Source of the DNA: Burkholderia sp. 9120
GTDB lineage: Bacteria; Pseudomonadota; Gammaproteobacteria; Burkholderiales; Burkholderiaceae
Length of the DNA stretch: 64,000 bases
Assembly: GCF_000745015.1 (NCBI RefSeq)
Contig: NZ_JQNA01000002.1
Coordinates: forward strand, 3,968,001 to 4,032,000
Direction of reading: 5' to 3'
The notes under the pieces are model-generated. The model had not been told where the DNA came from and made no database searches. It was given only the letters and a program-made list of their open reading frames with translations. A program made the translations under genes and the position numbers. This document shows positions 8,292-57,033 of this stretch, piece by piece; position 1 is the first letter of the stretch, and every line of letters begins with the position of its first letter.

Positions 8292-9071
8292 TTAAGGCAG
8301 CGAAATCGTCAACGTAGCCGATTGCGGGCCGAGCTTGACCACTTGCGAATACGGCGCGAGCGAACGCAACGTCTGATCGCGCAAATACGTGTTCAGCCCC
8401 AGATAAGCCAGCAACCCCACCAGCGCGAACACCGCGCCAATCGACCACAGCGGCACCTCGCGCTTGAGCCGGTGCGCGACCTGATCGGGCAGCGGCCAAT
8501 GCGGCGCGAACGGCGCGCGTTTGCCCTTCATATGCGCGATTTCGTCGCCGATACGAGCGGTCAGATACGCGAGCTTCTCGGGCCCTTCGAGCAGGTACTT
8601 GCCCTGAAAACCGAGCAGCAGGCACATGTGAAACACCTCGAGCGACTGCAGGCGCGGCGCGCCTTGCGCGCGGCATTCCTCGAGATAGTGGAAGAACTTC
8701 TCGCCCGCCAACTGTTCGCCGAACAGCGTCAGTTGCAGCGGCCGGCGTTCCCACTCGGTGCGGATCTTGAAGGTGGACGACAACACCGATTCGTCGATCG
8801 CCGCGCAGAACGCAAACTTCGACGCATAGACGTCTTCCGCCGACGCGTTGAGCTTCTTCGCGCCGCGCTCGAAGTCGCCGAGGAATTGCTGGATGCGCTG
8901 GCTGAACTCATGCGCTTCGCCCGGTTCGCGGCCGTTCTTCAGCAGGAACAGCATGAAGAAGCCGTCGTACAGTAGATCGAGCAGCGAGCGAACCTGATAG
9001 CTCGGCTCGCTGGCGGGGGCGGGCGTTGCGGCAGGTGTGCTGCCGCCAAACAGGGAGGGCGCGTAGCTCAT
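8292..9071 (-). CDS. tssL: T6SS inner-membrane protein TssL (DotU/IcmH)
   Basis: A 259-residue DotU-family protein, part of the TssJLM membrane complex that anchors the type VI secretion machine. It is mostly cytoplasmic (LLDLLYDGFFMLFLLKNG, CAAIDESVLSS, EEFFHY-like segment EKFFHYLEE). One C-terminal transmembrane helix, LWSIGAVFALVGLLAYLGL, leaves a short periplasmic tail, so there is no OmpA-like peptidoglycan-binding extension; a separate OmpA-family gene in this locus (23859-24851) may supply that function. The start overlaps the tssK stop by 4 bp (ATGA), indicating translational coupling. Confidence 0.94.
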   Translation of the reverse strand: MSYAPSLFGGSTPAATPAPASEPSYQVRSLLDLLYDGFFMLFLLKNGREPGEAHEFSQRIQQFLGDFERGAKKLNASAEDVYASKFAFCAAIDESVLSSTFKIRTEWERRPLQLTLFGEQLAGEKFFHYLEECRAQGAPRLQSLEVFHMCLLLGFQGKYLLEGPEKLAYLTARIGDEIAHMKGKRAPFAPHWPLPDQVAHRLKREVPLWSIGAVFALVGLLAYLGLNTYLRDQTLRSLAPYSQVVKLGPQSATLTISLP

Positions 9072-10414
9072 GAGGTGACGGCGATCAGTTCGAGTTGAAG
9101 ATCGTTGATGCCCGACGGCGCGTAGATCATTGCCGATTGGGCTTGCAACATGCGGTCATACAGCGCACCGCGCGATTCGAAGGAGAAGTAGCACGCGCCC
9201 GGGCGCACCGGAATGGCGGGCGGCACCTGCGGCGTGTAGACGAGCCGCACGCCCGGCATGGCCGAGAGCACCAGCTTGTCGACGTCGTCCGGCGCGCCGA
9301 CCTTGAAGCGCGCGGGCACGGCTTCGACGAGTTCGGCGGTCGGCATGTCGGCCGACACGGCGATGTAGAACTGGGTTTTGTCGTCGATCTTGCCCGAGTC
9401 GAGACGGCCCGCATGGAACGACGGGCGGACTTCTTCGAGCGAGATCGCGAAGTAGCGCGTGGAGATCACGGTTTCGAGCAGATCGCGCAGGATCGTGTCG
9501 AGACGCGCGAACGACGGGCCCGGATCGTCATGCCGGTACGCCGGCAGATCGGACAGCGCGTAGCCCTTCGAAAACGTCATCAACTGACCGGCGAGGCGCA
9601 GCAATTCCTGGAACAGCCGCTCCGGATGCAGTGCCGAATGCTGGTAAAGATGCGCAAGCGACGCGAATGCCGCGCTCGCCGTATGCAGCAGCCAGAACGA
9701 CGCGATGTCGCCGGAACGGAATTCGATGATGTTCTTGGTCGGCTCGCGGTGAAAGCCGTACAGCGCGTTGACCTTGGCCTGCAACGCGTCGATCAGTTGA
9801 CGCAGCCGCTGATGCAGCACCGGCGACGCGTCGATCGCGAGGCAGGGCGGCACGAAGCTGTCGTCGAATTCGAAACCCGAGGTGGCCGTGCGGCGCACGC
9901 GCACGAGCGGCACCGACAGCAACTGGTCGCGCGGCTCGCTATGCGCAATGAGTTTGACGCTGGTCTTCAGGAAGGTGATGTCGGCTTCGGCGGCGTCGGT
10001 GAAATGATCGGCCACCGGCGTCTGCTCGCTCACGTAACGCGACACGAAGCCCGCGTTCCTGTCTTGCGAGTAGTTCGCGCCGGTTTCGCGCAGCGGATGC
10101 AGCGCGAGATAAAACGTGAATTCGTTGATGCCGTCGGGCAACGTGTCCAGCGCGATGGGCGGCGGCAACTCGTCGGCTTGCGGCGCCGAGTAGAGCGCGC
10201 CGTCCGGAAACACCAGCGACAGTTCGCTCAGGCGCAGCACGTTGCTGCCGATCGCGTCGCGGTCGAAGCGCGCCGAACGCACGCCCCAGTTGTACGGCTG
10301 GATCGCCTGGATCGATTCGAACAGGCGCGCCTCGTGATAGGCGTCCTGACGCTGAAAATGCTGAGGCCTCAGAAACAGGCCTTCCCCCCAAAGCACTTTT
10401 GCGGAATAACTCAT
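9068..10414 (-). CDS. tssK: T6SS baseplate protein TssK
   Basis: A 448-residue TssK. It connects the baseplate wedge (TssEFG) to the membrane complex. The N-terminal signature KVLWGEGLFLRPQHFQRQDAYHE is diagnostic, and the protein has the usual family length. It lies in a leftward unit tssJ-tssK-tssL, with a 108-bp gap after tssJ and a 4-bp overlap into tssL. No missing region is apparent. Confidence 0.96.
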   Translation of the reverse strand: MSYSAKVLWGEGLFLRPQHFQRQDAYHEARLFESIQAIQPYNWGVRSARFDRDAIGSNVLRLSELSLVFPDGALYSAPQADELPPPIALDTLPDGINEFTFYLALHPLRETGANYSQDRNAGFVSRYVSEQTPVADHFTDAAEADITFLKTSVKLIAHSEPRDQLLSVPLVRVRRTATSGFEFDDSFVPPCLAIDASPVLHQRLRQLIDALQAKVNALYGFHREPTKNIIEFRSGDIASFWLLHTASAAFASLAHLYQHSALHPERLFQELLRLAGQLMTFSKGYALSDLPAYRHDDPGPSFARLDTILRDLLETVISTRYFAISLEEVRPSFHAGRLDSGKIDDKTQFYIAVSADMPTAELVEAVPARFKVGAPDDVDKLVLSAMPGVRLVYTPQVPPAIPVRPGACYFSFESRGALYDRMLQAQSAMIYAPSGINDLQLELIAVTS

Positions 10415-10522
10415 CTCAAACCTGTTATATGCGTTCAGCGTGTGGCGTGCCCGGACATTACCGATTCGAGCGCCGCATTGTTAATTGTGTAGAAACTGTT
10501 AAATCGTATTTGCACGGCATCT

Positions 10523-11155
10523 TTATCCGCAACTCACCGAAGAAAGCATATTCAGCGGCTGCGCGGGCAATCCCTGTTCCGGCGGGATCACGGTGCCGTT
10601 GGTCACGGTCATTGCACAGTTATGCAGGCCGATCATTATGCCGGATTTCTCCGACTTCGCCGGGTCGAAGGCGAATTTCCAGCGTTGCATGGCCGGATCG
10701 CGGAATAGAGCGACGATACCGAATGCCTGCGCTTCACGCGAGACTTTTTCGGTAACGGTGTAGCGCTGCCCCGGGATCAGTGTTACTTCACGCACGCCCA
10801 GCAAATCGCCGCCGAGCGTAGTCTTTTCCTTACTCGGATCGGTAAATGCGTCAAATGGCGCCTGCTGGAATGAGGTGGGGTCTTTCAGCACATAAAGCCG
10901 CACGACCAGCGCCAATGGCCGGTTGTCGGTCGCGGCATTCAGATTCGGCGCGGCGTATAAGGTCAGGCCGACATTGCGCGGCGGCTTCTGCGCGTCAGGC
11001 AGTTCCGGCTTGCCGAGGCCGCTGGCCTGCAGCACCGCGTTGGCGGCCGCGCCCAGCACCGGCACAGCGGCCGCGCAACCGCCCAGAAGCGCGCAGGCGG
11101 CGGCGCTCGCAATCAATAACGATGCATGGCGAACAAAACCCGAATTCATATACAT
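10523..11155 (-). CDS. tssJ: T6SS outer-membrane lipoprotein TssJ
   Basis: A 210-residue lipoprotein with a signal peptide ending in the lipobox LLGGC (lipidated Cys27). The mature part has the TssJ pattern LTLYAAPNLNAATDNRPLAL, VVRLYVLKD and the loop before GDLLGVREVTLIPGQ, the region that contacts TssM in the periplasm. It is the first gene of the leftward tssJKL unit and is divergent from the tssB unit. Two nearby ATGs (11155 and 11149) are possible starts. The start-side flank is notably AT-rich. Confidence 0.9.
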   Translation of the reverse strand: MYMNSGFVRHASLLIASAAACALLGGCAAAVPVLGAAANAVLQASGLGKPELPDAQKPPRNVGLTLYAAPNLNAATDNRPLALVVRLYVLKDPTSFQQAPFDAFTDPSKEKTTLGGDLLGVREVTLIPGQRYTVTEKVSREAQAFGIVALFRDPAMQRWKFAFDPAKSEKSGIMIGLHNCAMTVTNGTVIPPEQGLPAQPLNMLSSVSCG

Positions 11156-11511
11156 CGACCGGCTTGGCGCCGCCCCCCGTCAATACATCAATAACGAAAT
11201 CAATCCGGCTATTTGCAACAACGCGAATCCACGCATTGCCGCTTTATGCAAACTGCATGTGTTGCCGGTTGGTAGCTTGTTTGCCGCCAGCCAGTGGAAA
11301 TTTTTTCCGCTTTCGACAATAACGCTATTGCACCAGGAAACAATTTCTGCATGTTTCGTTTAAATGATCCGTATGCATTTTTTTTGTGCAATGCTTCTTC
11401 ACACGAAAGTTGAATTATCGAAAATTGGCCTGTACTATACCCGCGCACTTGAAGCAAAGCAAAACTCCGGTTTCTCCTTGAATTAAAAAATTCGCACGTC
11501 GGTGAAAAACG
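11156..11511. other. Divergent T6SS promoter region (tssJ unit / tssB unit)
   Basis: About 356 bp, clearly AT-richer than the flanking genes, between divergent halves of the T6SS locus. It must hold promoters for both directions; a candidate rightward promoter is at 11410-11438. A small frame in the region shows no family resemblance and is probably chance. AT-rich islands like this are common binding sites for H-NS-type silencers, but no specific site can be named. Confidence 0.5.
11410..11438 (+). promoter_or_regulatory. Candidate sigma70 promoter for the tssB unit
   Basis: TTGAAT (11410-11415) and TACTAT (11433-11438) are separated by exactly 17 bp, about 73 bp before the first gene of the rightward T6SS unit. 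The sequence around it is AT-rich. It is a pattern match only; a sigma54-type site was looked for and not found. Confidence 0.45.
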
Positions 11512-12192
11512 ATGAATGAGCGTCTGTTAGTAAAACTATCTGGGGTTGTGTTGGCATGCGGCGTGATGGCCGGTTGCGCGACACAGGGCGACAACGTGGC
11601 GGCCACACCCGAGGCTTTTAATAAGCAACTCGCGGACGCCGATACGGTCGCGAAGGGTGGCGATCAGGATCGCGCCATCCTGCTTTATCAGCAATTGTCC
11701 AAATCCGATCCGACGCGTGAAGAACCGTGGTCGCGCATTGCGCAGATCCAGTTCACGCAAGGTCATTACGGTCAGGCGATCGTCGCCGCGCAGGAAGCGC
11801 TCCAGCGCGACCAGACCGACCGTCAGGCGAAGAGCGTGCTGGCGGTGGCCGGCTTGCGCGTCGCCACGCAATCGCTCGGCGAATTGCGTCAGGACGCGTC
11901 GCTCGCGGGCGACGCGAAGTCCGACGCGCAGGCGCTCGCCAAGCAACTGCGCGACACGCTCGGCGAGGCCACGCTGTTCCCGCCCGATCCGAACGACAAG
12001 CCGGTCGTGAAGAAGAAAAAGTACGTTCGCCATGTGCCGAAGGGCAAGCCGGCGGAAGCGGCCGAAGCGAACAACAGCGCCGCGGCTCCGGCCGCCACGC
12101 CGGCGGCGCCTGCCGCTCCGGCAGCGCCGGCAGCACCCGCCAAAGCCGCACAAAGCGGCGGCGCGTCCGACCCGTTCAGCGCGTTGCGTTGA
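11512..12192 (+). CDS. T6SS-associated TPR lipoprotein
   Basis: A 226-residue lipoprotein: signal peptide and lipobox VMAGC (Cys22), then TPR-like helices (AILLYQQLSKSDPTREEPWSRIAQ, IAQIQFTQGHYGQAIVAAQEAL). A basic stretch (KKKKYVRH) and a low-complexity Ala/Pro tail made of AAP repeats follow. It is the first gene of the rightward T6SS unit, 36 bp before tssB. Burkholderia T6SS loci often carry such a TPR lipoprotein at this place (a TagM-type accessory gene), but I do not assign the name. A role as an envelope scaffold for the membrane complex is inference. Confidence 0.75.
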   Translation: MNERLLVKLSGVVLACGVMAGCATQGDNVAATPEAFNKQLADADTVAKGGDQDRAILLYQQLSKSDPTREEPWSRIAQIQFTQGHYGQAIVAAQEALQRDQTDRQAKSVLAVAGLRVATQSLGELRQDASLAGDAKSDAQALAKQLRDTLGEATLFPPDPNDKPVVKKKKYVRHVPKGKPAEAAEANNSAAAPAATPAAPAAPAAPAAPAKAAQSGGASDPFSALR

Positions 12193-12227
12193 ACGTAGCC
12201 TGATCCATTCGCATCCGGGAGCCGACG

Positions 12228-12755
12228 ATGGCGAAGAAAGAGAGCATTCAGAAACGCTTGCAAAAAGTGCGGCCGCCGCGCGTTCAATTGACCTATGAGG
12301 TCGAACGCGGCGATGCGATCGAAATCAAGGAACTGCCGTTCGTCGTCGGCGTGGTTGCCGATCTGGCCGGTCAGTCCGAAGTCGAGCAGCCGAAGCTGCG
12401 CGACCGCAAGTTCGTCAACATCGATCGCGATAATTTCGACGACGTGATGAAGGCGATCGAGCCGCGCGCCGCGTTCCAGGTTGAAAACCGCCTGAGCGAA
12501 ACGGGCGGCAAGTTCGCTGTCGACCTGCGTTTCAAGTCGATGGCCGACTTCAATCCGGACGAAGTGGTATCGCAGATCGAGCCGCTGCGCCGCCTGCTCG
12601 AAGCACGTTCGAAGCTGGCCGACCTGCGCAACAAGCTGGCCGGCAACGACAAGCTCGAAGATCTGCTGAGCGAAGTGCTCAACAACACGCAGCAGTTGCA
12701 AACCCTTGCGAAAGACCAGGGCGACGCGGCAGACCACGACAAGCAGGGCGAATAA
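12228..12755 (+). CDS. tssB: T6SS contractile sheath small subunit TssB (VipA)
   Basis: A 175-residue TssB. It forms the contractile sheath with TssC around the Hcp tube. The pattern ESIQKRLQKVRPPRVQLTYE at the N-terminus, ELPFVVGVVADLAG, and DRKFVNIDRDNFDDVMKAI are hallmarks of the family. It is followed 19 bp later by tssC, as in nearly all T6SS loci. Confidence 0.97.
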   Translation: MAKKESIQKRLQKVRPPRVQLTYEVERGDAIEIKELPFVVGVVADLAGQSEVEQPKLRDRKFVNIDRDNFDDVMKAIEPRAAFQVENRLSETGGKFAVDLRFKSMADFNPDEVVSQIEPLRRLLEARSKLADLRNKLAGNDKLEDLLSEVLNNTQQLQTLAKDQGDAADHDKQGE

Positions 12756-41222: not shown

Positions 41223-41894
41223 ATGAGCATTCTCGTCATTGAAGACGATCCGAAAACCGGCGACTACCTGAAGAAGGGTTTGCGCGAGAGCGGCTATGCG
41301 GTCGATCTCGCCCGCACCGGCACGGACGGTCTGCACATGGCCCTCGAACAGACGTATGAACTGGTGGTGCTGGACGTGATGCTGCCCGGCATCGACGGTT
41401 GGGAAATCATGCGCGCGCTGCGGGCGCGACGCGATCTGCCGGTCATTTTCCTGACCGCGCGCGACCACGTCAGCGATCGCATTCGCGGTCTCGAACTCGG
41501 CGCGGACGACTATCTGGTCAAGCCGTTTTCGTTCACCGAACTCGTACTGCGCATTCGCACGCTGCTGCGGCGCGGCGTGATCCGCGAAAGCGACGTGTTC
41601 GAGATCGCCGACCTCAAGCTCGACGTGCTGCGTCGCAAGGTGACGCGCGAAGGCGTGGAGATTGCGCTGACCAATAAGGAATTCATGCTGTTGCACCTGC
41701 TGGTGCGACGTCAGGGCGAAGCGCTGTCGCGCACGCAGATCGCCTCTGAAGTGTGGGATATGAATTTCGACAGCGATACGAATGTGGTGGACGTCGCCGT
41801 CAAACGGCTGCGCGCCAAGGTCGATCATCCGTTCGAGAAGAAGCTGATCCACACGGTGCGCAGCATCGGCTACACGTTCGGCGACGGCTCATGA
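41223..41894 (+). CDS. OmpR-family response regulator (IrlR/CusR/HprR-like)
   Basis: A 223-residue regulator: receiver domain with [20 protein letters not shown], acceptor Asp in [10 protein letters not shown], Thr in FLTAR and Lys in [13 protein letters not shown]-terminal winged helix contains VALTNKEF-like [20 protein letters not shown] and [20 protein letters not shown]. The close pattern is that of the heavy-metal subgroup (CusR, CopR, IrlR, and HprR/YedW). Its stop overlaps the kinase start by 4 bp. In E. coli, HprSR (YedVW) sits beside and controls msrPQ in response to oxidants; here the same type of pair sits beside an MsrP-like cassette. Target control is inference. Confidence 0.92.
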
Positions 41895-43291
41895 GCTGGT
41901 GGGCCGAGCGGTCACTGACGGCGCGCACCACGGTGCTGTTCGCGTCGATTGCCTGCGTGGTGATCGGCACGCTCGGCGCGTATTTCTATCACTCCGCCGA
42001 AGTATCGCTGGAGCGCCGCGCCGACGTCGTGCTGACCGGCCGTGTCGAGCACTTCAGCCGTATCGTTCAGGATATGTATTCCGTCAGCGAATTGAAGGAG
42101 CGCCCGCTACTGTTCGAAACCATGTTGGGCGGAGAGGCGGACGTGCTGCTGTTTCGCCGGCCCAACGAGACGCCGTTTATCGACGTCAATCCGGCTGGCA
42201 TCGCGGTGCCGCCGTTGCAGGCCGCGCCGTCGGGCCGCCTGCCGACCTTCGCCGAGATTCGCCGCACCGTGCTGGCGGACGGCGTGCCGGTGCATTGGGC
42301 GATCGCGACAGCCAAGGCGCGCGAGGACGGCGCCGAAGTCGAAGTGATTGCCGCGCATCCGATGACCCAGGAAGTGCGCATGCTCGCGGCGTATCGCAAC
42401 CGCATCCTGCTGGCCACGCTGTGCGGCATGCTGGCGTCCACGCTGCTCGCTTACTACGTGTTGCGCCGCGCGTTGCGGCCGGTGCGCGAGATCGCCACGC
42501 GCGCCGCGCAGATCAGTCCGGCGAGCCTCGCGGTGCGGCTCGACAGCGACGCCGCGCCGGTCGAGTTGCGCCAGCTCACGCACGCGTTCAACGCGATGCT
42601 CGACCGTCTCGCGGATGGGTATCAGCGCTTGTCGCAGTTTTCCGCCGATCTGGCGCATGAAATCCGCACGCCGATCGGCGCGCTGATCGGCCAGACCCAG
42701 GTCACACTCGCGAAACCCCGCGAGCCCGACGAGTATCAGCAGGTGCTCGAATCGAATCTGGAAGAGCTGAACCGCCTGAGTCACATTGCCGAGAACATTC
42801 TGTTTCTGGCGCACGCGGATCATGCGGCGCTGTCGGTCGATCGGGAAACGGTCGACCTGCGTGAGGAACTCGTCAGAATCGCCGACTATTTCGAAGGTCT
42901 CGCCGACGAGCGCGGCATGCGCTTCACGATCGAGGCGACCGGATCAGTCTCCGCCGATCCGATGCTGTGCCGGCGCGCGATCAACAATCTGGTCGTGAAT
43001 GCGGTGAGATATGGAGCGCCCAACACGGTGGTGCGCTTGAGCGGCGCAAACGACGAAACGGGCGCGACCGTGGTGGTGGAGAACGACGGTGCACCGATTC
43101 CGGAGGATCAGTTGCACCGGCTGTTCGATCGTTTCTACCGGGCGGATGCGGCGCGCAGCGAGTTCACCGAATCGAGCGGGCTGGGGCTCGCCATCGTCAA
43201 GGCGATCATGCATCTGCATGGCGGCGCCGCACAGGCGGCTTGTCCCGCGCCCGGCGTGGTGCGCTTCGAATTGCGCTTTCCGCGTGCCTGA
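41891..43291 (+). CDS. Heavy-metal-type sensor histidine kinase (IrlS/CusS/HprS-like)
   Basis: A 466-residue membrane kinase. TM1 ([19 protein letters not shown]), a periplasmic sensor of about 145 residues and TM2 ([19 protein letters not shown]) precede a HAMP region. The H-box is [20 protein letters not shown], the N-box [11 protein letters not shown], the F-box LFDRFYRAD and the G-box [21 protein letters not shown] 41891 overlaps the regulator stop (ATGA). The periplasmic domain shows no His/Met cluster typical of copper sensing, which leaves oxidant or redox sensing open. Confidence 0.92.
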
Positions 43292-43440
43292 TCGCGAACG
43301 GGCCAACCATCTAACGACCGCGCGGGCGTATTTCAGCGCATGGCGGGTAACGTCGATACCGGGATGATTGCGCAACTGGCTACCGCTTTCCGCTCTCGAT
43401 ACGATGGTGTGACCCATTTCCCCTATCCGGAGAGAACACC

Positions 43441-43764
43441 ATGAAGCGGTTTCACATAGCCCTTGCGGTCGCCGACCTTGACACTTCGATTGCCGACTAC
43501 AGCCTGCGTCTCGGGCAAGCGCCCACCGCGGTGGTGTCCGGTCAGTACGCCATGTGGCGTACCGATCTGCTCAACTTCTCGATCAACATGACGCCGGAAA
43601 AAGCGGGCCAATTGCGCCACATCGGCTTTGAGGACGACGCGGCCGAGGGCTTCACGAAGAGCGTCGACGTGAACGGCCTCGAATGGGAGCACTTTTCGGC
43701 GCAGGAACAGGATCGGCGTATCGAGAGTACTTATGGCCACGCGGTCCGCGCGGATCGAAGCTGA
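43441..43764 (+). CDS. Glyoxalase/VOC-family protein
   Basis: A 107-residue single-domain protein beginning MKRFHIALAVADLDTSIADY with TDLLNFSINMT and VNGLEWEHFS, the paired beta-alpha-beta-beta-beta arrangement of the vicinal oxygen chelate fold. Candidate metal ligands (His5 and Glu in EWEHF) are present, but the substrate is not predictable. AGAGAACACC precedes the ATG. The gene follows the two-component system by 150 bp on the same strand and converges with luxI. Confidence 0.72.
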   Translation: MKRFHIALAVADLDTSIADYSLRLGQAPTAVVSGQYAMWRTDLLNFSINMTPEKAGQLRHIGFEDDAAEGFTKSVDVNGLEWEHFSAQEQDRRIESTYGHAVRADRS

Positions 43765-43851
43765 GGCAGGCGGCATTGCGTTGGCCATGACCACGCGGTG
43801 ACCGCCCGGACTCAGCACTTCAAGGTCGTTCATCGCGTTGTGTCGAGAGGG

Positions 43852-44430
43852 TCAGGCCGATCGATCGCACAGCAGCGTCAATCCGGCCCGGTCCACGTCG
43901 AGAGAAAATGCCGCCAGGCTATCTCCGCGCGCCGTGTCCACTGGACCCATGGCGCGCAGCACCAGCCCTAGCCGGCGGTAGAGCCGCGTCATTCCGACCG
44001 GGGCGACGCCGATCAGGCGTTGAATTCCTAAGCAGGTCGCGTATTGAAAAACGATCCGCAGCAGTTGACGCATTCGCTCCAGGTCGATCGCCACGTCGGC
44101 ATGTAACGTGGTGAAGCGCGACATTTCCCATATGCGAGCATCGCCGGCCAGCGGTGCGGACAACAGATCGGGAAACACCTCAGCCAGCAGATAAGGCCGC
44201 GTGGTGGGCAGCAGGCGTGTGTAGCCGCAGATCTGCCGGGTCTCGGTGTACCCGATGACATGGGTGGTGTCGTTGCGGTCGAATTCATCCCACTCTTCCC
44301 TGGCCGGGTTTCCGGCGGACGGCAAATCCCATTGCATGTGTTCGACGAATACCGCATGCCGGTATCGGCCAAGCTGCCGTCTGGCGATGGGGCTGAGATT
44401 GTCCATCGTGACGATCGCAATTTCGTCCAT
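43852..44430 (-). CDS. LuxI-family N-acyl-homoserine lactone synthase
   Basis: A 192-residue AHL synthase that makes the quorum signal from S-adenosylmethionine and an acyl donor. The invariant LuxI residues can be placed: Arg, Phe and Trp in RYRHAVFVEHMQWDLP, the acidic residues in EEWDEFDRND, Arg in GYTRLLPTTRPYLL, Phe in VFPDLL, and Glu/Arg in IWEMSRF. The start is ATG 44430 (MDEIAIVTMD). It lies only 10 bp after luxR on the same strand, so the two are probably one transcript. The acyl chain length cannot be read from sequence. Confidence 0.95.
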   Translation of the reverse strand: MDEIAIVTMDNLSPIARRQLGRYRHAVFVEHMQWDLPSAGNPAREEWDEFDRNDTTHVIGYTETRQICGYTRLLPTTRPYLLAEVFPDLLSAPLAGDARIWEMSRFTTLHADVAIDLERMRQLLRIVFQYATCLGIQRLIGVAPVGMTRLYRRLGLVLRAMGPVDTARGDSLAAFSLDVDRAGLTLLCDRSA

Positions 44431-44440
44431 GACCCGCTCT

Positions 44441-45163
44441 CTATAGATAACCGTAGGCGATCGCATACGCGGCGGCCGCGACCTTGGATGACGCGTTGAG
44501 TTTTCTCATACAGTTTTTCAAATGAAAGTTCACGGTATCGGCCGAGATATCCAACGCGTTGGAGATGCTTTTGGCGGATCCGCCGTCGGCGGTCCAGCGA
44601 AGGATTTCAATTTCACGCCGGGTGAGATTGATTTCAGTTGTGTCGTCCCGCTGTCGGTCGGCAATGGTGCTCACACACGTCATCGACAGATGGCTGAGTG
44701 CGGCAAGGTACGGTCGCAGCGCTTGTATCTCGTGGCAACCGAGGGCCGGGTAATCGCGCGCGAGGGAGAACACGCCGCACCGTCCGCGCGCGTCCCAGCA
44801 AGGCTGGGAGATGCCGACTCGCAGTCCCGCGGAGCGGGCTTCGTCCCATAAGGGTTGGGCGTCGCTGAAAAGGTCGTCGTTCCAGACGGTGGGCGTCAGG
44901 TCCCTGACGTCGAGTCTCGCGATCGGATCGATCTCCAGATAGTGCTGATCGAGGTAGCGCGATACCCACGGCGTGGGATAGGAACTCTTGATCACGACGT
45001 TCCTGAAATGAAAGGGCGGGCGATTGTGATAACCGAACGCGCAATACGCAAACCCAAGGTCTTGTGATGCACGCGACAGCACGGTGAGCGCGTGGTCGAT
45101 CTGCTCGCAGTTCTGCAGTTTGAAGAAGAGATCGTTCCACCATCCGGAGGGGTCAGGGCACAT
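44441..45163 (-). CDS. LuxR-family AHL-responsive regulator
   Basis: A 240-residue quorum-sensing regulator. The autoinducer-binding domain keeps the classic residues Trp and Tyr in PTPWVSRYLDQHY, Asp-Pro in EIDPIA, Trp in TVWNDD and Gly in GLRVGISQ. The C-terminal GerE-type helix-turn-helix contains LTRREIEILRWTADGGSAKS, then ISADTVNFHLKNCMRKL. ATG 45163, with GGAG 8 bp upstream, is a better start than TTG 45181. The order luxR-luxI in tandem, with luxR first, means the signal gene depends on the luxR promoter. Confidence 0.95.
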   Translation of the reverse strand: MCPDPSGWWNDLFFKLQNCEQIDHALTVLSRASQDLGFAYCAFGYHNRPPFHFRNVVIKSSYPTPWVSRYLDQHYLEIDPIARLDVRDLTPTVWNDDLFSDAQPLWDEARSAGLRVGISQPCWDARGRCGVFSLARDYPALGCHEIQALRPYLAALSHLSMTCVSTIADRQRDDTTEINLTRREIEILRWTADGGSAKSISNALDISADTVNFHLKNCMRKLNASSKVAAAAYAIAYGYL

Positions 45164-45567
45164 CGCTAGCTCCGCTTTCAAATGTGTTTACAGACAGAAC
45201 GCATAAGAATTAGTTCGGACTCTTGACTGGGGGGCGATACGAAGCCGACCGACGCCAACGGTTCCCCCTGCACGATTACGCATAGTAAAGGCGAATGGGG
45301 ATGGATTAGCGGACAGCGGGGCGTTTCCTGCCAATTGCCGGAGCGCGACATAAGGGCGCGCTCGCGGGCGGAGTGGCGAAAGAAAGGCATGGCAATTTTC
45401 GGCGGCAACCACGCCGATTCCGCGATCGACCCTACCAAAGATGGGAGCTTTCTCAGGACCAGGTTCATGTAATTGTTTGTGCAGGCAGATCGGTCGGGAC
45501 GGGTTGTCATCCGCGCGCCATGTCGTGGCTATAGATAGCTGGCGCATTTCAAACAAAGGAGTCTGCA
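45164..45567. other. Divergent region between luxR and the ATP-grasp gene
   Basis: About 400 bp that should hold the promoters of luxRI (leftward) and of the ATP-grasp/MFS pair (rightward). TTGTCA (45504-45509), 17 bp, then GGCTAT (45527-45532) is a weak sigma70-like match for the rightward unit, and AAAGGAG is a good ribosome site before 45568. I did not find a convincing 18-20 bp lux box. Two overlapping leftward frames here show no family resemblance and are probably not genes. Confidence 0.5.
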
Positions 45568-46905
45568 ATGCTTGAATCGTTCTCAGGAAGTGGCGATTTT
45601 CCTGTTTTTGATCCCGAGAAAGACTGGATCACGTTGGGACAGGATCAATCGAAGGCCGAACTGAATCGGGCCTACGCCTACGTACAGGAACGCGCGATCC
45701 AGGACCGGTTATCGATGAGCTTCGAAGGCGATCAGTCGCGCGCTTATCCGGTCATGTCGGGTTTTTGCGCGCTTCACGCCGCGACAGAAGAAGTGCTGTC
45801 GGCGCAAATAAAAACGGTATTCGACGCGTTGCAGAAGATCGTCGCCACGTACCGGACCGACAAGAACCTCCAGCACTTTCTCGACATTCCGAAGCCGCTG
45901 AACCGCTGGATCAAGGAAGACGCGCAGCCATCGAACAACCGGATCGATCTGTGCCGTTTCGATCTGATGGGGCGCAGCCTGGCGCAGTTGAAAATCATCG
46001 AATTCAATGCGAACGCGCCGGGCGGCATCGTGTACGCCGGCATGATCAACCGCTATTGGCGGCAGGCGCCTTGGTCCGCGGAGTTGATCGAATCGTGGGG
46101 CGGCGCTCCTTCTGCGTTCGAGCGGGAAGATTGGGTCGCCGACTGGCTCTCGGCACTGGCCGACGCGCGCGGCATGGAAGCGATCGAAGGTATCGCGCTG
46201 CTGCATCCCGCGGGCGGCAATATGCTTGAATTGCCTCACCTGAAGAAGCGGCTGGAGGCGCGCGGCCTACGCGCCGCCATGCTGAGCCCGGAGCAACTAT
46301 TCGAGGACGCGGACTCCTCGTTTCGACTTGGCTACCTGAAATACGGCGTACAGCGCGCTCTTCAGGACATCGGACAATGGGACCGCTTCTGCCGAAGCGT
46401 CGTGGAAGGGCGACTGGTGATCCCATCGTCGCTAGCGGGGCGCTGGATCGGCGACAACAAACTCTGTATCGCCGTCATGTCGGACCCGCGCTTCGCCTAT
46501 CTGTTCGACGACGCCGAGCGCGCGGCGATTCATGCCCTCGTGCCGCTGAGCCGCAAACTCGGCGACGGCGTGAGCCGCGCGGACCTGCTCAACAATAAAG
46601 ACGACTTCGTCATCAAGCATCCGTACGGCACGCGCGGCGCGGCGGTCCACGTCGGGCGCGACTACGACGCGGCCACGTGGACTGACCTGATCATGCAAAC
46701 GTCTTCTTCGGGCTACGTCGTGCAACGCTTCGTCGACTCGGAATGCGAGGTCGAAGGCGAGACCTGCTTCCGGGATCTGGTGGTGACGATTGCCAGCGGC
46801 GAAATTGCCGGCTATGGATCGCGTGTCAGCCGGGCGCGCAAAGTCAACATCGCGCAGGAGGGCCGCAAGATGGCGGTGCTGAGTTCGCTGCGCGCCACGC
46901 GCTGA
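45568..46905 (+). CDS. ATP-grasp ligase-like protein (glutathionylspermidine synthase-like fold), quorum-linked, unknown product
   Basis: A 445-residue protein. The segment CRFDLMGRSLAQLKIIEFNA, then NAPGG resembles the nucleotide/metal-binding part of circularly permuted ATP-grasp and glutathionylspermidine synthase-type ligases. A later block NNKDDFVIKHPYGTRGAAVH fits a phosphate-binding loop, and CEVEGETCFRDLVVTIASGE looks like the acidic metal-binding end. Such enzymes join a carboxylate to an amine through an acyl phosphate, as in peptides or polyamine conjugates. It is divergent from luxRI and followed 9 bp later by an MFS exporter, suggesting quorum-controlled synthesis and export of a small amide. 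The substrate is unknown; the family call is by motif only. Confidence 0.65.
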   Translation: MLESFSGSGDFPVFDPEKDWITLGQDQSKAELNRAYAYVQERAIQDRLSMSFEGDQSRAYPVMSGFCALHAATEEVLSAQIKTVFDALQKIVATYRTDKNLQHFLDIPKPLNRWIKEDAQPSNNRIDLCRFDLMGRSLAQLKIIEFNANAPGGIVYAGMINRYWRQAPWSAELIESWGGAPSAFEREDWVADWLSALADARGMEAIEGIALLHPAGGNMLELPHLKKRLEARGLRAAMLSPEQLFEDADSSFRLGYLKYGVQRALQDIGQWDRFCRSVVEGRLVIPSSLAGRWIGDNKLCIAVMSDPRFAYLFDDAERAAIHALVPLSRKLGDGVSRADLLNNKDDFVIKHPYGTRGAAVHVGRDYDAATWTDLIMQTSSSGYVVQRFVDSECEVEGETCFRDLVVTIASGEIAGYGSRVSRARKVNIAQEGRKMAVLSSLRATR

Positions 46906-46914
46906 TCCGGGCGA

Positions 46915-48171
46915 GTGCGACTTTTTCCTTTACGCTGGTTCACGCAGCAGGGCAAGCGCTTCGATGCGCTTGCCTGCCGGGACTTCCGGCGCTTTACGTG
47001 CGGCAACGGCGTGTCGCTGATCGGAACATGGTTGCAGCGGGTCGGCGCCGGTTGGCTGGCGTGGGAAGCCAGCCATTCGAGCGTGTGGCTCGGCATCGTG
47101 GCGTTCGCCGATCTGTTCCCCACGCTCCTGTTCGCGCCGCTCGCGGGGGTGATGGCGGACCGCTGCGACCGGCGCAAGGTCGTGCTTTACTGCCAATGCG
47201 TCGCGATGGCCATGGCCCTCCTGCAGTGCGGTCTGTTGCTAGGCGGTGTCCAGTCGCTCGCCTGGCTGCTGGTGACGACGTCGATCTCGGGGACCGCGAA
47301 TGCGTTGTGTCAGCCCGCGCGCATGGCCTGGGTATCGGGCCTCGTGCCGAAACCGCGCCTTGCGTCGGCGGTGGCGATCAATTCGCTGTGCTTCAATCTC
47401 GCGCGTTTCGCCGGACCGGCGGTCGCGGGCGCGGTGCTGCTCGAGTTCGGCACGGCGGCGCTGTTCGGGTTGAATGCGCTCAGCTACGCGGTCTTCATCG
47501 TCGTGCTAGTGCGCATGCCGGCGGCCCCGATGCCTGCCGCCATGGCGCCGTCCGCCCGGTGGTTCGGCGACGCGCTGGACGGCTTTCGCTACCTCGCGTC
47601 GGTCGCGTATTTAAGGGGCGTTTTCGTGATCACGGCGGCGTCGGCCGTGTGCATTCGCGGCATTCCGGAGCTGGCGCCGGCCATCAGCGAACAGTTGCTG
47701 CGACAGGGGCCGCGTGGTTTCGCGTCGCTGGTTGCCGCGGCGGGCGCCGGGGCGCTGGCGGGCGGCATCTGGTTCAGCGGCCGCGACGGCGCGCGATATG
47801 TGGCGAGCCTGATCAAGCGCCACGTGCTGGCGGCGTCGCTCTGTGCGTTGGCGTTGGCGCTGACGCGCGATTTCCGGCTCGCGTTAGCGCTTTTCTTCGC
47901 GATGGGTTTTTCGATCGTCGTGACCGGTATCGGCGCGCAGACGTTGATTCACCAGTCGGTGCCGGAGCATCTGCGCGGGCGCGTGCTGGGATCGTATGGG
48001 GTGATTTTTCGCGGCGGACCGGCCCTGAGCGCGTTGTGGCTCGGGGCGGCCGCACCGCTTGGCGGACTGCGCGTGGCGCTGGGACTCGGCGGCGTGCTGT
48101 GTGTGCTGATCTGTGTCATGGCGAGCGTCCGGGTTCGCCGGGCGCCTGGCCACCTGGCGCGGTCGCGCTGA
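46915..48171 (+). CDS. MFS transporter (EntS-like exporter family)
   Basis: A 418-residue protein with about 12 TM helices of the major facilitator superfamily in the EntS/enterobactin-exporter-like branch: FRRFTCGNGVSLIGTWLQRV, the A-loop motif GVMADRCDRRKVVLYCQC, and late HLRGRVLGSYGVIFRGGPAL. The start is GTG 46915, 9 bp after the ATP-grasp gene, so the two are probably one operon. The likely role is export of the ligase product or self-protection; that is inference from context. Confidence 0.85.
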   Translation: MRLFPLRWFTQQGKRFDALACRDFRRFTCGNGVSLIGTWLQRVGAGWLAWEASHSSVWLGIVAFADLFPTLLFAPLAGVMADRCDRRKVVLYCQCVAMAMALLQCGLLLGGVQSLAWLLVTTSISGTANALCQPARMAWVSGLVPKPRLASAVAINSLCFNLARFAGPAVAGAVLLEFGTAALFGLNALSYAVFIVVLVRMPAAPMPAAMAPSARWFGDALDGFRYLASVAYLRGVFVITAASAVCIRGIPELAPAISEQLLRQGPRGFASLVAAAGAGALAGGIWFSGRDGARYVASLIKRHVLAASLCALALALTRDFRLALALFFAMGFSIVVTGIGAQTLIHQSVPEHLRGRVLGSYGVIFRGGPALSALWLGAAAPLGGLRVALGLGGVLCVLICVMASVRVRRAPGHLARSR

Positions 48172-48194
48172 ACGTGCCACCGCGCCTCCCTACG

Positions 48195-49724
48195 TCACTC
48201 GCCCAGCGTGCCCGCTTCCTGCTGGTTCTGGTAGTGCGCGCGTTTTTCCTCGTACATCAGCAGATCCGCGCGCTGCACGCCCGCTTCGAGTCGGTCGCCG
48301 CGCTGGCAGGTCGCGGCGCCCATTGAAAAGCTCAGCGGCGCGCCCGGATAAAACTGGTTGTTCATCTCCACCAGTTGTCGGATCGCCTCGATCATCGCCG
48401 CGCCGCCGCGTTCGTCGGTGTCCGGCATCAGGACCGCGAATTCGTCGCCGCCAATTCGCGCCGCGTGAAACGGGATATCCATCGCCTTGGCGAGCACTTC
48501 GCCGGCGCGCCGCAACAGCGCGTCGCCGGCGGCATGGCCGAGCTGGTCGTTGACGCGTTTGAGGCCGTTCAGGTCGGCCATGATGATGGTCACCGGCCAC
48601 GGACCTTTACGCTCCAACCGGTTCAGTTCATCGACATAGAACGAACGGTTGCGCAGCTTGGTCAGCACGTCGTGCTTGCCGAGGAATTCCAGGTAGGCCT
48701 CGGCCTTCTTGCGCGCCGTGATGTCGGTCAGCGCCACCAGCACCAGGTCCCAGTTTTTCTCGTGTCCCGGCAGCACGGAGAATTGCAGATGCACATGCAC
48801 TTCGCTGCCGTCGAGCGAATAGTTGAGCACCTCGCGCTGCTGGAACAGCTTGTTGTCCCACAGGTCGATCAACTGCTCGCGGAAATGCGGCCGCATGTCG
48901 TCGCGGAATACGTCGGCGAGCCGCGCCAGCAGCGTGGGTTTGTCTTTCGCGGCGAACATGTCGAGCGTGTGCTGGTTCACGTCGAGCACATGGATTTCCT
49001 GCATGCAGCGCTCGACGAACTCGGGGTGCACGTCGGTGAACACGCGAAAATCGCTGATGCCGGCCGCCCGCGCGTCGTCGAGCAGACGCTTGACCGCGCT
49101 GAAGTCTTCCACCCACAGCGACACCGGCGAATGCTCGAACAACCCGCGCACGTATTGTTCGGCGAGCGTCACGCGATGCCGGGCGCCTTCCAGTTCCGTG
49201 ATGTCCTCGACCGACACCAGCACGCGGTCCCAGTTCGCTTCGTGGCCTGGCAGCACGGCGCCCTTGAGCAGCACGTCGAGGCGGCGGCCGCCGAGCGTGT
49301 AGTTGACCGTGTGGCTCGTGAATTGCGAATGCCCCGCCCACAACTGGCACAGCTCTTCGAGGTGGGTCTTGAGCATGTCGTCGCGGAACACCGCGGCGAG
49401 GTTGCCGGTAAGCGCGTCGAAATCGGCGGCTTCGAACTGCGTCAGCGTCTTCTGATTGACCTTGATCACGCGGATGCTGTGCGCGCAGTCGGCGACCCGG
49501 CTCGGCTCCGCGGCGAAATGCGCGCGCAGATCCGTGACGCCTTCGGCACGCCACGCGTCGAACAGCGCGCGCACGCCGCTGAAGTCTTCGAGCCAGAGCG
49601 AGACCGGCGCGAGTTCGAACATTTCGAAATCGTCGCCCGATGCGTCGCGGGGATTTGCTTCGGGGCGGCTGATTTGCCGGGCGGCGGGGGCGGAGGCGGG
49701 GTCGTGCGGGAGCATATCCAGCAT
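48195..49724 (-). CDS. Diguanylate cyclase with two related PAS-like sensor modules
   Basis: A 509-residue, apparently soluble protein. Two PAS-like modules of about 150 residues each share a pattern: APVSLWLEDFSGVRALFD and SPVSLWVEDFSAVKRLLD, each ending in an NWDxVLVxxxDIT segment, so the N-terminus arose by internal duplication. The C-terminal GGDEF domain has the active-site motif RIGGDEFAVLMPD near residue 427 and DLNGLKRVNDQLGHAAGD. No RxxD inhibitory site lies five residues before GGDEF, so product inhibition at the usual I-site is unlikely. It makes cyclic di-GMP. It converges with the MFS gene 24 bp away. Confidence 0.93.
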   Translation of the reverse strand: MLDMLPHDPASAPAARQISRPEANPRDASGDDFEMFELAPVSLWLEDFSGVRALFDAWRAEGVTDLRAHFAAEPSRVADCAHSIRVIKVNQKTLTQFEAADFDALTGNLAAVFRDDMLKTHLEELCQLWAGHSQFTSHTVNYTLGGRRLDVLLKGAVLPGHEANWDRVLVSVEDITELEGARHRVTLAEQYVRGLFEHSPVSLWVEDFSAVKRLLDDARAAGISDFRVFTDVHPEFVERCMQEIHVLDVNQHTLDMFAAKDKPTLLARLADVFRDDMRPHFREQLIDLWDNKLFQQREVLNYSLDGSEVHVHLQFSVLPGHEKNWDLVLVALTDITARKKAEAYLEFLGKHDVLTKLRNRSFYVDELNRLERKGPWPVTIIMADLNGLKRVNDQLGHAAGDALLRRAGEVLAKAMDIPFHAARIGGDEFAVLMPDTDERGGAAMIEAIRQLVEMNNQFYPGAPLSFSMGAATCQRGDRLEAGVQRADLLMYEEKRAHYQNQQEAGTLGE

Positions 49725-56623: not shown

Positions 56624-57033
56624 GAAGCTCCTTCAAAGCGGCGATATAGACAAAGCATGCGGAAAATGTCGCGGCGTCGCCGGCGTTTCACTTCCGGGAA
56701 ATCGCACGAAGCACAACCGTCCGGTCGACAATGCAGGCCGCATTGTAGCGCGCCGAATTCGCCGTTTCGTCCGACAATGCCAGCGGTGTGGCGGTTTCCA
56801 ACCGCCTGCCAGGCGGGGCAGCAGCGCAATTTCACCTTAACCGCAATGCGTGACACTGCCTGAATTCCAGCATGGGCGCGCCTTTCCGCTTCCTTTCGCT
56901 TAATCCCAGGTTCGTTTGAGAATTTTAGTAGGAGTAAAATTTAAGCTTGACGCAATTTTTAGCTCAAGGTAATTTTGAAAAGCGGTCCCGGCCGTTGCGT
57001 GCGCCTGATCGATAAACAAAACATGGGCATCCG
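56624..57033. promoter_or_regulatory. Divergent promoter region with AT-rich inverted repeat
   Basis: 410 bp between the XRE-cupin gene and the aminopeptidase gene. The last 130 bp are AT-rich. AATTTTA (56921-56927), a 7-base spacer and TAAAATT (56935-56941) form a 7-bp inverted repeat about 93 bp before the aminopeptidase start, a candidate operator. No ORF of interest lies in the region. Confidence 0.5.

What the first reader, a model, noticed from the sequence alone, without database searches (positions are those of the whole stretch)
43852..48171. Quorum-sensing pair divergent from an ATP-grasp ligase-like gene and an MFS exporter
A luxR-luxI tandem with all canonical residues faces a two-gene unit encoding an unassigned ATP-grasp/glutathionylspermidine synthase-like protein and an EntS-type exporter with 9-bp spacing. 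This looks like a minimal quorum-controlled synthesis-and-export locus for an amide-linked small molecule. I do not recognise it as a described pathway.
Basis: partly seen in the sequence, partly recalled or inferred. Interest (0 to 1): 0.75.

Follow-up and report, generated by a model that had tools for sequence, protein, structure and literature searches.

The report
Quorum-sensing-controlled ligase and exporter cassette
A few Paraburkholderia species carry a small portable gene set in which a bacterial crowd-sensing switch appears to turn on one amide-bond-forming enzyme and its exporter, which suggests an undescribed secreted small molecule made with very few genes.

Summary
A complete luxR-luxI pair faces a two-gene unit: a 445-aa PF03738 (glutathionylspermidine-synthase type ATP-grasp) protein and, 9 bp on, an MFS_3 exporter. 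New evidence: (1) of 144 genomes of the genus, 7 have the ligase; all 7 have exporter and luxR beside it, 6 a close luxI. An eighth keeps luxI, luxR and exporter but only about 24 ligase codons. (2) The luxR-ligase gap holds a lux-box-like dyad, CTACCA-N6-GG(A/G)G, in 8 of 8 carriers, with a conserved -10-like element placing it near -41; none in 15 non-carrier loci. (3) A GNAT-like gene follows luxI in 3 of 8 carriers and was found in none of the other 141 genomes. (4) The ligase-exporter pair recurs without lux genes in a small-genome relative. Best reading: an AHL-controlled, NRPS-independent cassette making and exporting an amide-linked small molecule. Quorum control is well supported by sequence; ligase chemistry rests on family membership with weak links to characterised enzymes; product, substrates and cargo are inferred. 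Structure prediction failed. Five paper searches found no description.

The parts
43852..44430 (-). luxI-type AHL synthase (192 aa from the likely ATG at 44430; longest ORF to 44466)
   Evidence: Pfam Autoind_synth 59.9 bits; best PDB match 3p2f AHL synthase E 1.8e-32
44441..45163 (-). luxR-type receptor/regulator (240 aa from the likely ATG at 45163; longest ORF to 45181), upstream of luxI, apparently one operon
   Evidence: Autoind_bind plus GerE; RhlR-variant, RhlR and SdiA structures, best E 1.4e-48
45328..45343 (.). possible second, weaker lux-box-like site CTGCCAATTGCCGGAG (candidate for luxR-luxI autoinduction); tentative
   Evidence: aligned stretch in 7 carriers, CT[A/G]CC in 6 of 7 (read by eye); part of a conserved patch once G165 is left out; G165, which lacks luxI, lacks this stretch
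45432..45447 (.). lux-box-like operator CTACCAAAGATGGGAG
   Evidence: CTACCA-N6-GG[A/G]G once in each of 8 carrier loci, always before the ligase gene; 0 in 15 non-carrier loci; 9 of 16 columns invariant in 8 genomes; rank 1 of 389 windows for dyad symmetry with 8 or 7 genomes, rank 3 with the 4 most divergent
45468..45473 (+). probable -10 element TGTAAT; box centre at about -40.5 (or -42.5 if TAATTG 45470-45475 is the hexamer)
   Evidence: conserved block around TGTAATT(G)T; no sigma-70 consensus promoter found in 45100-45700, as expected for an activator-dependent promoter
45568..46905 (+). ATP-grasp ligase of the PF03738 (GSP_synth / YgiC) type, 445 aa
   Evidence: dN/dS 0.12-0.17
46915..48171 (+). 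MFS_3-family exporter, 418 aa from GTG (true start may be slightly downstream), co-transcribed by position
   Evidence: Pfam MFS_3 171 bits, MFS_1 106.7 bits; next to the ligase in the 7 ligase-bearing genomes and in G616

Best explanation
This is a compact, sporadically distributed biosynthetic cassette under acyl-homoserine-lactone quorum control. LuxI makes an AHL; LuxR bound to it sits on the dyad at 45432-45447, just upstream of a -10 element, and activates the ligase-exporter transcript. The ATP-grasp ligase phosphorylates the carboxylate of a building block that the cassette itself does not make and joins it to an amine, giving an amide (pseudo-dipeptide or peptide/acid-amine conjugate), which the MFS_3 protein exports. 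In some carriers a GNAT-like protein encoded after luxI acetylates the product, as tailoring or self-protection. Shown by sequence: the gene set, its conserved linkage, the conserved dyad and its position, selection on the genes, the PF03738 match. Inferred: that LuxR binds the dyad and activates, the AHL, substrates, product, direction of transport, role of the GNAT-like protein.
For: Genus census (144 genomes, own included): ligase 7, exporter at E<=1e-60 8, luxI of 59% identity or more 7; all 8 carrier loci hold luxR at 66% identity or more. Dyad in 8 of 8 carriers and 0 of 15 non-carrier loci; rank 1 of 389 windows by symmetry with 8 or 7 genomes; LuxR-type boxes are usually 20-bp palindromes centred at -42.5 (passage read in PMC4471428). 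Ligase: 23 of 25 aligned members, own included, match PF03738 at E<=0.01; profiles reach YgiC at E 0.0013 and 3e-4; collinear profile alignment with YgiC over 322 columns, E 0.00096, and with the GspS synthetase part over 96 columns, E 0.00044, against 12 columns at E 0.52 for TolC, the one control; R130, D132, E145, N147, N297, K298, K350, Q386, R419, N427 invariant in 25 and in 32 sequences. RefSeq names YgiC 'peptide--spermidine ligase'. The pair recurs adjacent in G616 with no lux match in the stretch. Distant rhizobial relatives (25-26%): one lies beside an L-amino-acid-ligase-type ATP-grasp and an MFS_3 protein, another about 2 kb from an autoinducer-binding LuxR protein.
Against: Only two catalytic/transport genes; no precursor gene seen in the cassette. 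Links to characterised ligases are weak: hhalign probabilities 22% and 33%; YjfC and GspS structures come at E 0.28 and 1.2 with A1 and 0.016 and 0.54 with A2, while unrelated flagellin chains score 0.24-0.28; no structure was obtained. With only the 4 most divergent carriers the dyad falls to rank 3, and the lead over the next window is small (0.547 against 0.500). G165 lacks luxI; G136 lacks most of the ligase yet keeps exporter and dyad. The two other exact box matches in the genome lie inside ORFs, so no wider regulon was seen. Cargo and direction of transport are unknown.
Confidence: 0.62

Rival explanations
1. YgiC-like housekeeping chemistry: the ligase joins a common peptide or acid to a polyamine (for example a peptide with spermidine) for stress tolerance or polyamine balance, and the MFS protein exports polyamines or conjugates; quorum control merely times it.
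For: The best-scoring solved relative is YgiC, with YjfC and GspS behind; RefSeq name of YgiC.
Against: Sporadic distribution, 7 of 144 genomes, and absence at the same interval in 10 of 15 non-carrier stretches examined look like an accessory trait; by pairwise BLAST the protein is related to a rhizobial one that lies beside a peptide-ligase-type ATP-grasp (26%, E 2e-24), while YgiC is reached only by profile.
Confidence: 0.2
2. Self-defence or detoxification: the ligase inactivates a toxic compound by conjugation and the MFS pump expels it, with quorum sensing anticipating self-made or competitor antibiotics.
For: The exporter shows matches to drug-efflux models such as Tet(V) and Mef, all far under cut-off; GNAT-like neighbour in 3 of 8 carriers; G616 has NRPS-like ORFs beside the pair (by reading).
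Against: I recall no resistance enzyme of this ligase family (recalled, not searched). The carriers' flanks were not annotated systematically, so an antibiotic cluster nearby was not ruled out.
Confidence: 0.1
3. The ligase makes or modifies a second signal, or acts on the AHL or a homoserine-derived acid, so the locus is a signalling module and not a metabolite pathway.
For: In the window the ligase and exporter share the locus only with regulatory genes; the exporter could move a signal.
Against: The pair occurs in G616 in a 19.5-kb stretch with no lux match at E<=1e-3.
Confidence: 0.05
4. The two gene pairs are neighbours by chance at an insertion hot spot and LuxR does not control the ligase.
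For: The flank order differs among carriers and the interval is empty in relatives.
Against: Linkage with luxR in 7 of 7 ligase-bearing genomes and a dyad among the most conserved stretches of the gap.
Confidence: 0.03

Closest known systems
E. coli YgiC / YjfC (peptide-spermidine ligases) and GspS synthetase domain, PF03738
   Same: GSP_synth family; collinear with YgiC over 322 columns; R-x-D, E-x-N, N-K, K, Q and R positions line up
   Different: 19% identity to YgiC over aligned columns; no amidase part as in GspS (445 against 619 aa); operon with an exporter and a quorum pair; sporadic distribution
luxR homologue-linked biosynthetic gene clusters (PMC5872303, passages read)
   Same: LuxR/LuxI pair next to biosynthesis genes; [quoted passage not shown]
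   Different: those clusters came from antiSMASH classes, and clusters whose only biosynthetic gene was luxI were filtered out; a stand-alone ATP-grasp with an exporter may have been missed (inference)
NRPS-independent amide-ligase pathways with ATP-grasp enzymes (E-64 Cp1B, dapdiamide DdaF; PMC12568646, passages read)
   Same: stand-alone ATP-grasp enzyme makes an amide-linked small molecule; nearest structural relatives of Cp1B are said to include YgiC and YjfC
   Different: E-64 and dapdiamide use a second amide-forming enzyme, and E-64 a warhead enzyme; none was seen in this cassette, and control here appears to be by AHL quorum sensing
Rhizobial GSP-like plasmid loci (Sinorhizobium fredii GR64, Mesorhizobium amorphae)
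   Same: RefSeq 'glutathionylspermidine synthase family protein' near an MFS_3 protein (GR64) or near an autoinducer-binding LuxR protein (M. amorphae)
   Different: 25-26% identity; the M. amorphae protein itself hit no Pfam family at E<=0.001; extra LAL_C2-type ligase in GR64; different architecture

Membership tests
LuxI AHL synthase (PF00765) | domain match over the curated cut-off | tested here: met
   59.9 bits against 24; the narrower NCBIfam TraI equivalog is not met, 53.9 against 250
LuxR quorum receptor | autoinducer-binding domain plus GerE HTH | tested here: met
   108.2 and 71.1 bits over cut-offs 23 and 23.5; the narrower SdiA equivalog is not met, 148.9 against 350
LuxR quorum receptor | lux-box-like dyad upstream of the target, centred near -42.5 | tested here: met
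   8 of 8 carriers, symmetry rank 1 of 389 with 8 or 7 genomes, 3 with 4; start site predicted, not mapped; binding not tested
GSP_synth ATP-grasp (PF03738) | whole-protein score over gathering cut-off | tested here: met
   36.8 against 29.3 bits, residues 50-167 only; 23 of 25 members match at E<=0.01; P0014 matches over residues 106-426 but at 27.7 bits, and the G616 protein at 28.5, both under the cut-off; P0017 had no match
GSP_synth ATP-grasp (PF03738) | ATP-grasp fold | tested here: inconclusive
GSP_synth ATP-grasp (PF03738) | ATP-dependent carboxylate-amine ligation | not testable with these tools
   needs purified enzyme
Bifunctional glutathionylspermidine synthetase/amidase (GspS) | N-terminal amidase domain | tested here: not met
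   445 aa; PF03738 is the only Pfam match at E<=0.1; aligns only with the synthetase part of GspS
EntS enterobactin exporter | NCBIfam equivalog cut-off | tested here: not met
   100.4 against 324 bits
luxR-linked biosynthetic cluster | conserved physical linkage of lux genes with the biosynthetic gene | tested here: met
   luxR 7 of 7 and close luxI 6 of 7 ligase-bearing genomes of the genus; not so in G616
luxR-linked biosynthetic cluster | AHL-dependent product | not testable with these tools
   needs mutants and metabolomics

The most novel reading that the evidence does not exclude
A new family of quorum-controlled, NRPS-independent small molecules whose whole dedicated pathway is one PF03738-type ligase plus an exporter, with a cassette-specific GNAT-like protein family (5 protein clusters found in a search of a 5.8-billion-sequence collection) acting as tailoring or immunity factor; the ligase-exporter core was joined at least once to a lux pair and spreads as a 4-5 gene cassette into one chromosomal interval.
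Probability: 0.35. Interest if true: 0.68.

Novelty: new variant of a known kind. Interest (0 to 1): 0.52.

Why it matters
If right, this is about the smallest quorum-controlled biosynthetic locus one could work with: one switch, one bond-forming enzyme, one exporter, with natural variants lacking the AHL synthase (G165), the ligase (G136) or the GNAT-like gene (5 of 8 carriers). It gives a clean test of what stand-alone PF03738 ligases make outside glutathione-spermidine chemistry. By my inference such loci fall outside common cluster-detection rules, so similar ones may be overlooked.

Tried and rejected
Wider regulon: an exact search of the own genome for CTACCANNNNNGGGAG gave 3 matches (backwards control 1); the other two lie inside ORFs, so no regulon is claimed. 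In the window a symmetric pattern, CTRCCANNNNTGGYAG with one mismatch, also matched at 56806-56821, which I did not follow. EntS-like siderophore export: under cut-off. PDB sequence searches with the single ligase and with P0014: only chance-level matches. Viral contigs: none. Phylum sample: only the own genome, 1 of 398. Relatives P0015-P0024 (actinobacterial by my guess) could not be placed in context. Paper searches (listings) gave no description of this locus; passages of PMC10979984 and PMC10197875 gave nothing that I use. A stop in the aligned G112 exporter stretch is at residue 2 of that stretch, probably upstream of its true start, so I do not call it a pseudogene.

Footprint caveat: G165 lacks the middle of the gap, so no column there can be invariant in 8 genomes; I therefore repeated the count without G165 and with 4 divergent genomes and report all three.

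Structure prediction was asked, accepted at 87, polled at 89, 91, 94, 98, 101, 104, 107, 109, 111, 114, 116, 117, 120, 122, 124, and had failed at 128; no fold result is used. A second job, for the GNAT-like protein, was never accepted (112, 118).
Full report
What is there. The window is one stretch of an 8.46-Mb, two-contig genome (G000:C2:3968001-4032000). Two named close records are Paraburkholderia: P. bryophila LMG 23644 (L003) and Paraburkholderia sp. BL21I4N1 (L004). The four genes of the finding are real and complete. luxR and luxI are on the minus strand, luxR first. The ligase and the exporter are on the plus strand, 9 bp apart. The ligase is the only PF03738 match found in the genome.

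Distribution. In 144 genomes of the genus (own included) the ligase is found in 7, the exporter at E<=1e-60 in 8 and luxI at 59% identity or more in 7. 139 of 144 have some LuxI-like match at E<=0.001, many at about 30% identity; the own genome has a second one at C2:5546286 (29%). Six genomes have ligase, exporter and close luxI. G165 has ligase, exporter and luxR; its only LuxI-like match in the genome is 31% identical and elsewhere. G136 has luxI, luxR and exporter, but only about the first 24 codons of the ligase match. All 8 carrier loci hold luxR at 66% identity or more. A family sample found the ligase in 5 of 398 genomes, one of them outside the genus; a phylum sample in 1 of 398, the own. 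The first look of these searches limits the candidates scored.

Site. In 5 of 8 carriers the cassette lies between a response-regulator/histidine-kinase pair and a GGDEF gene. In the other three (G148, G108, G112) GGDEF is on the right but no kinase match was found in the fetched left flank. I fetched 15 non-carrier stretches, out of 113 non-carrier genomes with the GGDEF hit (121 less 8 carriers): 10 have kinase and GGDEF near each other, 5 lack a close kinase in the stretch, and none of the 15 has a match to luxI, luxR, ligase or exporter at E<=1e-10. The VOC-like gene is left of the cassette in three carriers (G000, G022, G165) and right of it in two (G112, G136). Synonymous divergence of the cassette genes exceeds that of the GGDEF gene in every genus-level comparison that gave a value (for example 0.86 for the ligase against 0.44 in G165), which fits exchange independent of the backbone, although other causes are possible.

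Operator. An alignment of the luxR-ligase gap from 8 carriers (404 positions on the own genome) has 31 invariant columns: 9 near luxR (45181-45214), 11 at 45432-45451, 7 at 45465-45476 and 4 beyond. G165 lacks the middle of the gap, so no column there can count; without G165 there are 63 invariant columns, 21 of them in that middle part. The 45432-45447 stretch is CTACCA-N6-GG(A/G)G; its halves are nearly invariant and its spacer varies, as expected for a dimeric regulator. For dyad symmetry, a measure that does not use the motif, it ranks 1 of 389 windows with all 8 genomes (0.547, next 0.500), 1 with 7, and 3 with the four most divergent. By conservation alone it is third with 8 genomes, behind windows over the -10-like block, and seventh and sixth in the two smaller sets. 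The pattern occurs exactly once in each of 8 carrier loci (138,007 bp in all) and not in 193,190 bp of 15 non-carrier loci. In the 64-kb window a form of it is unique with one mismatch allowed (0.23 expected; 17 of 100 shuffles have at least one), so conservation and not the single match carries the argument. The conserved TGTAATT downstream gives a predicted centre of -40.5 or -42.5; LuxR boxes usually lie at -42.5 (passages read in PMC4471428 and PMC7585371). A second, weaker site at 45328-45343 is aligned in seven carriers and missing in G165, which also lacks luxI; it could be the autoinduction site, tentatively.

Ligase. Pfam places it in PF03738 (36.8 against 29.3 bits, residues 50-167). 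23 of 25 aligned members, own included, match this family at E<=0.01, though several relatives fall under its cut-off. Profiles reach YgiC at E 0.0013 (A1) and 3e-4 (A2); YjfC (0.28, 0.016), GspS (1.2, 0.54) and trypanothione synthetase (0.43, A2) are not significant, and unrelated flagellin chains score 0.24-0.28. A profile alignment to YgiC is collinear over 322 columns (E 0.00096, probability 22%) and one to GspS covers 96 columns (E 0.00044, probability 33%); TolC as the one control gave 12 columns at E 0.52. Invariant residues include R130, D132, E145, N147, N297, K298, K350, Q386, R419 and N427; that several correspond to ATP/Mg ligands of GspS is recalled. dN/dS of 0.12-0.17 in six comparisons shows constraint. 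No predicted structure was obtained.

Partners. In G616, a 2.25-Mb genome of the same family (1 of 3 genomes of its genus), ligase (54%) and exporter (48%) are adjacent with a 2-bp gap; no lux gene matched in the 19.5-kb stretch at E<=1e-3. A PF13302 acetyltransferase gene follows, and NRPS- and PKS-like ORFs (by reading, not by a family search) lie nearby. I take the pair to be the core and quorum control an added layer. In three carriers (G148, G108, G112) a GNAT-like protein of 285-306 aa is encoded directly after luxI; only one sub-threshold Acetyltransf_9 match in one of two proteins scanned suggests the fold. It occurs in 3 of 144 genomes, all carriers, and in 5 protein clusters of the large collection, 3 of them named Paraburkholderia and 2 unnamed; two bear locus tags 15 and 3 numbers from a ligase tag (NDK50_29960/29975, R69927_05447/05450), which fits three genes' distance if the first series counts in fives. 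Distant rhizobial relatives (25-26%) sit beside an LAL_C2-type L-amino-acid ligase and an MFS_3 protein in one plasmid and about 2 kb from an autoinducer-binding LuxR protein in another; the latter relative hit no Pfam family itself.

Interpretation. The linkage, the operator and the family assignments make AHL control of an ATP-grasp ligase with its exporter the best reading. The substrate does not appear to be made by the cassette, so it is probably a common metabolite or peptide (inference). The closest working analogues are stand-alone ATP-grasp pathways such as E-64, whose enzyme's nearest structural relatives include YgiC and YjfC (PMC12568646, passages read). Membership in GspS proper (no amidase part) and EntS (under cut-off) was tested and not met.

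Novelty. Paper searches (listings) and passages of PMC5872303 showed no description; the library holds open-licence papers only. The kind, a luxR-linked biosynthetic locus, is known; the minimal ligase-exporter form with a cassette-specific GNAT-like protein is a new variant.

Noticed in passing
L012 5225-6082(-), L013 5255-6109(-), L016 4885-5805(-): GNAT-like protein family found only next to this cassette (3 of 144 genomes; 5 protein clusters in the large collection); no match in the window's genome.
   Followed up: yes
L056 9052-9123 (G136): Ligase match reduced to about its first 24 codons while luxI, luxR, the dyad and the exporter remain: a natural ligase-less variant.
   Followed up: partly
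L014 8634-9595 (G165): luxI missing between luxR and the VOC gene; luxR, dyad, ligase and exporter kept: a natural LuxR-solo variant, also missing the second box-like site.
   Followed up: partly
L083 (G616) 9013-12514: Ligase-exporter-acetyltransferase set with no lux match, beside large NRPS- and PKS-like ORFs (by reading), in a 2.25-Mb genome.
   Followed up: partly
L059 6603-11671; L058 7104-11278: Rhizobial plasmid loci with a distant GSP-like ATP-grasp near an L-amino-acid-ligase-type ATP-grasp and MFS_3 protein, or near an autoinducer-binding LuxR protein.
   Followed up: partly
window 41223-49724 and loci L062-L076: The kinase-GGDEF interval appears to be a variable site; the VOC gene lies on different sides of the cassette in different carriers.
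   Followed up: partly
window 43852-48171: Synonymous divergence of cassette genes is higher than that of the adjacent GGDEF gene in the genus-level comparisons that gave a value.
   Followed up: no
window 56806-56821: A second one-mismatch match to a symmetric lux-box-like pattern in the window, context not examined.
   Followed up: no
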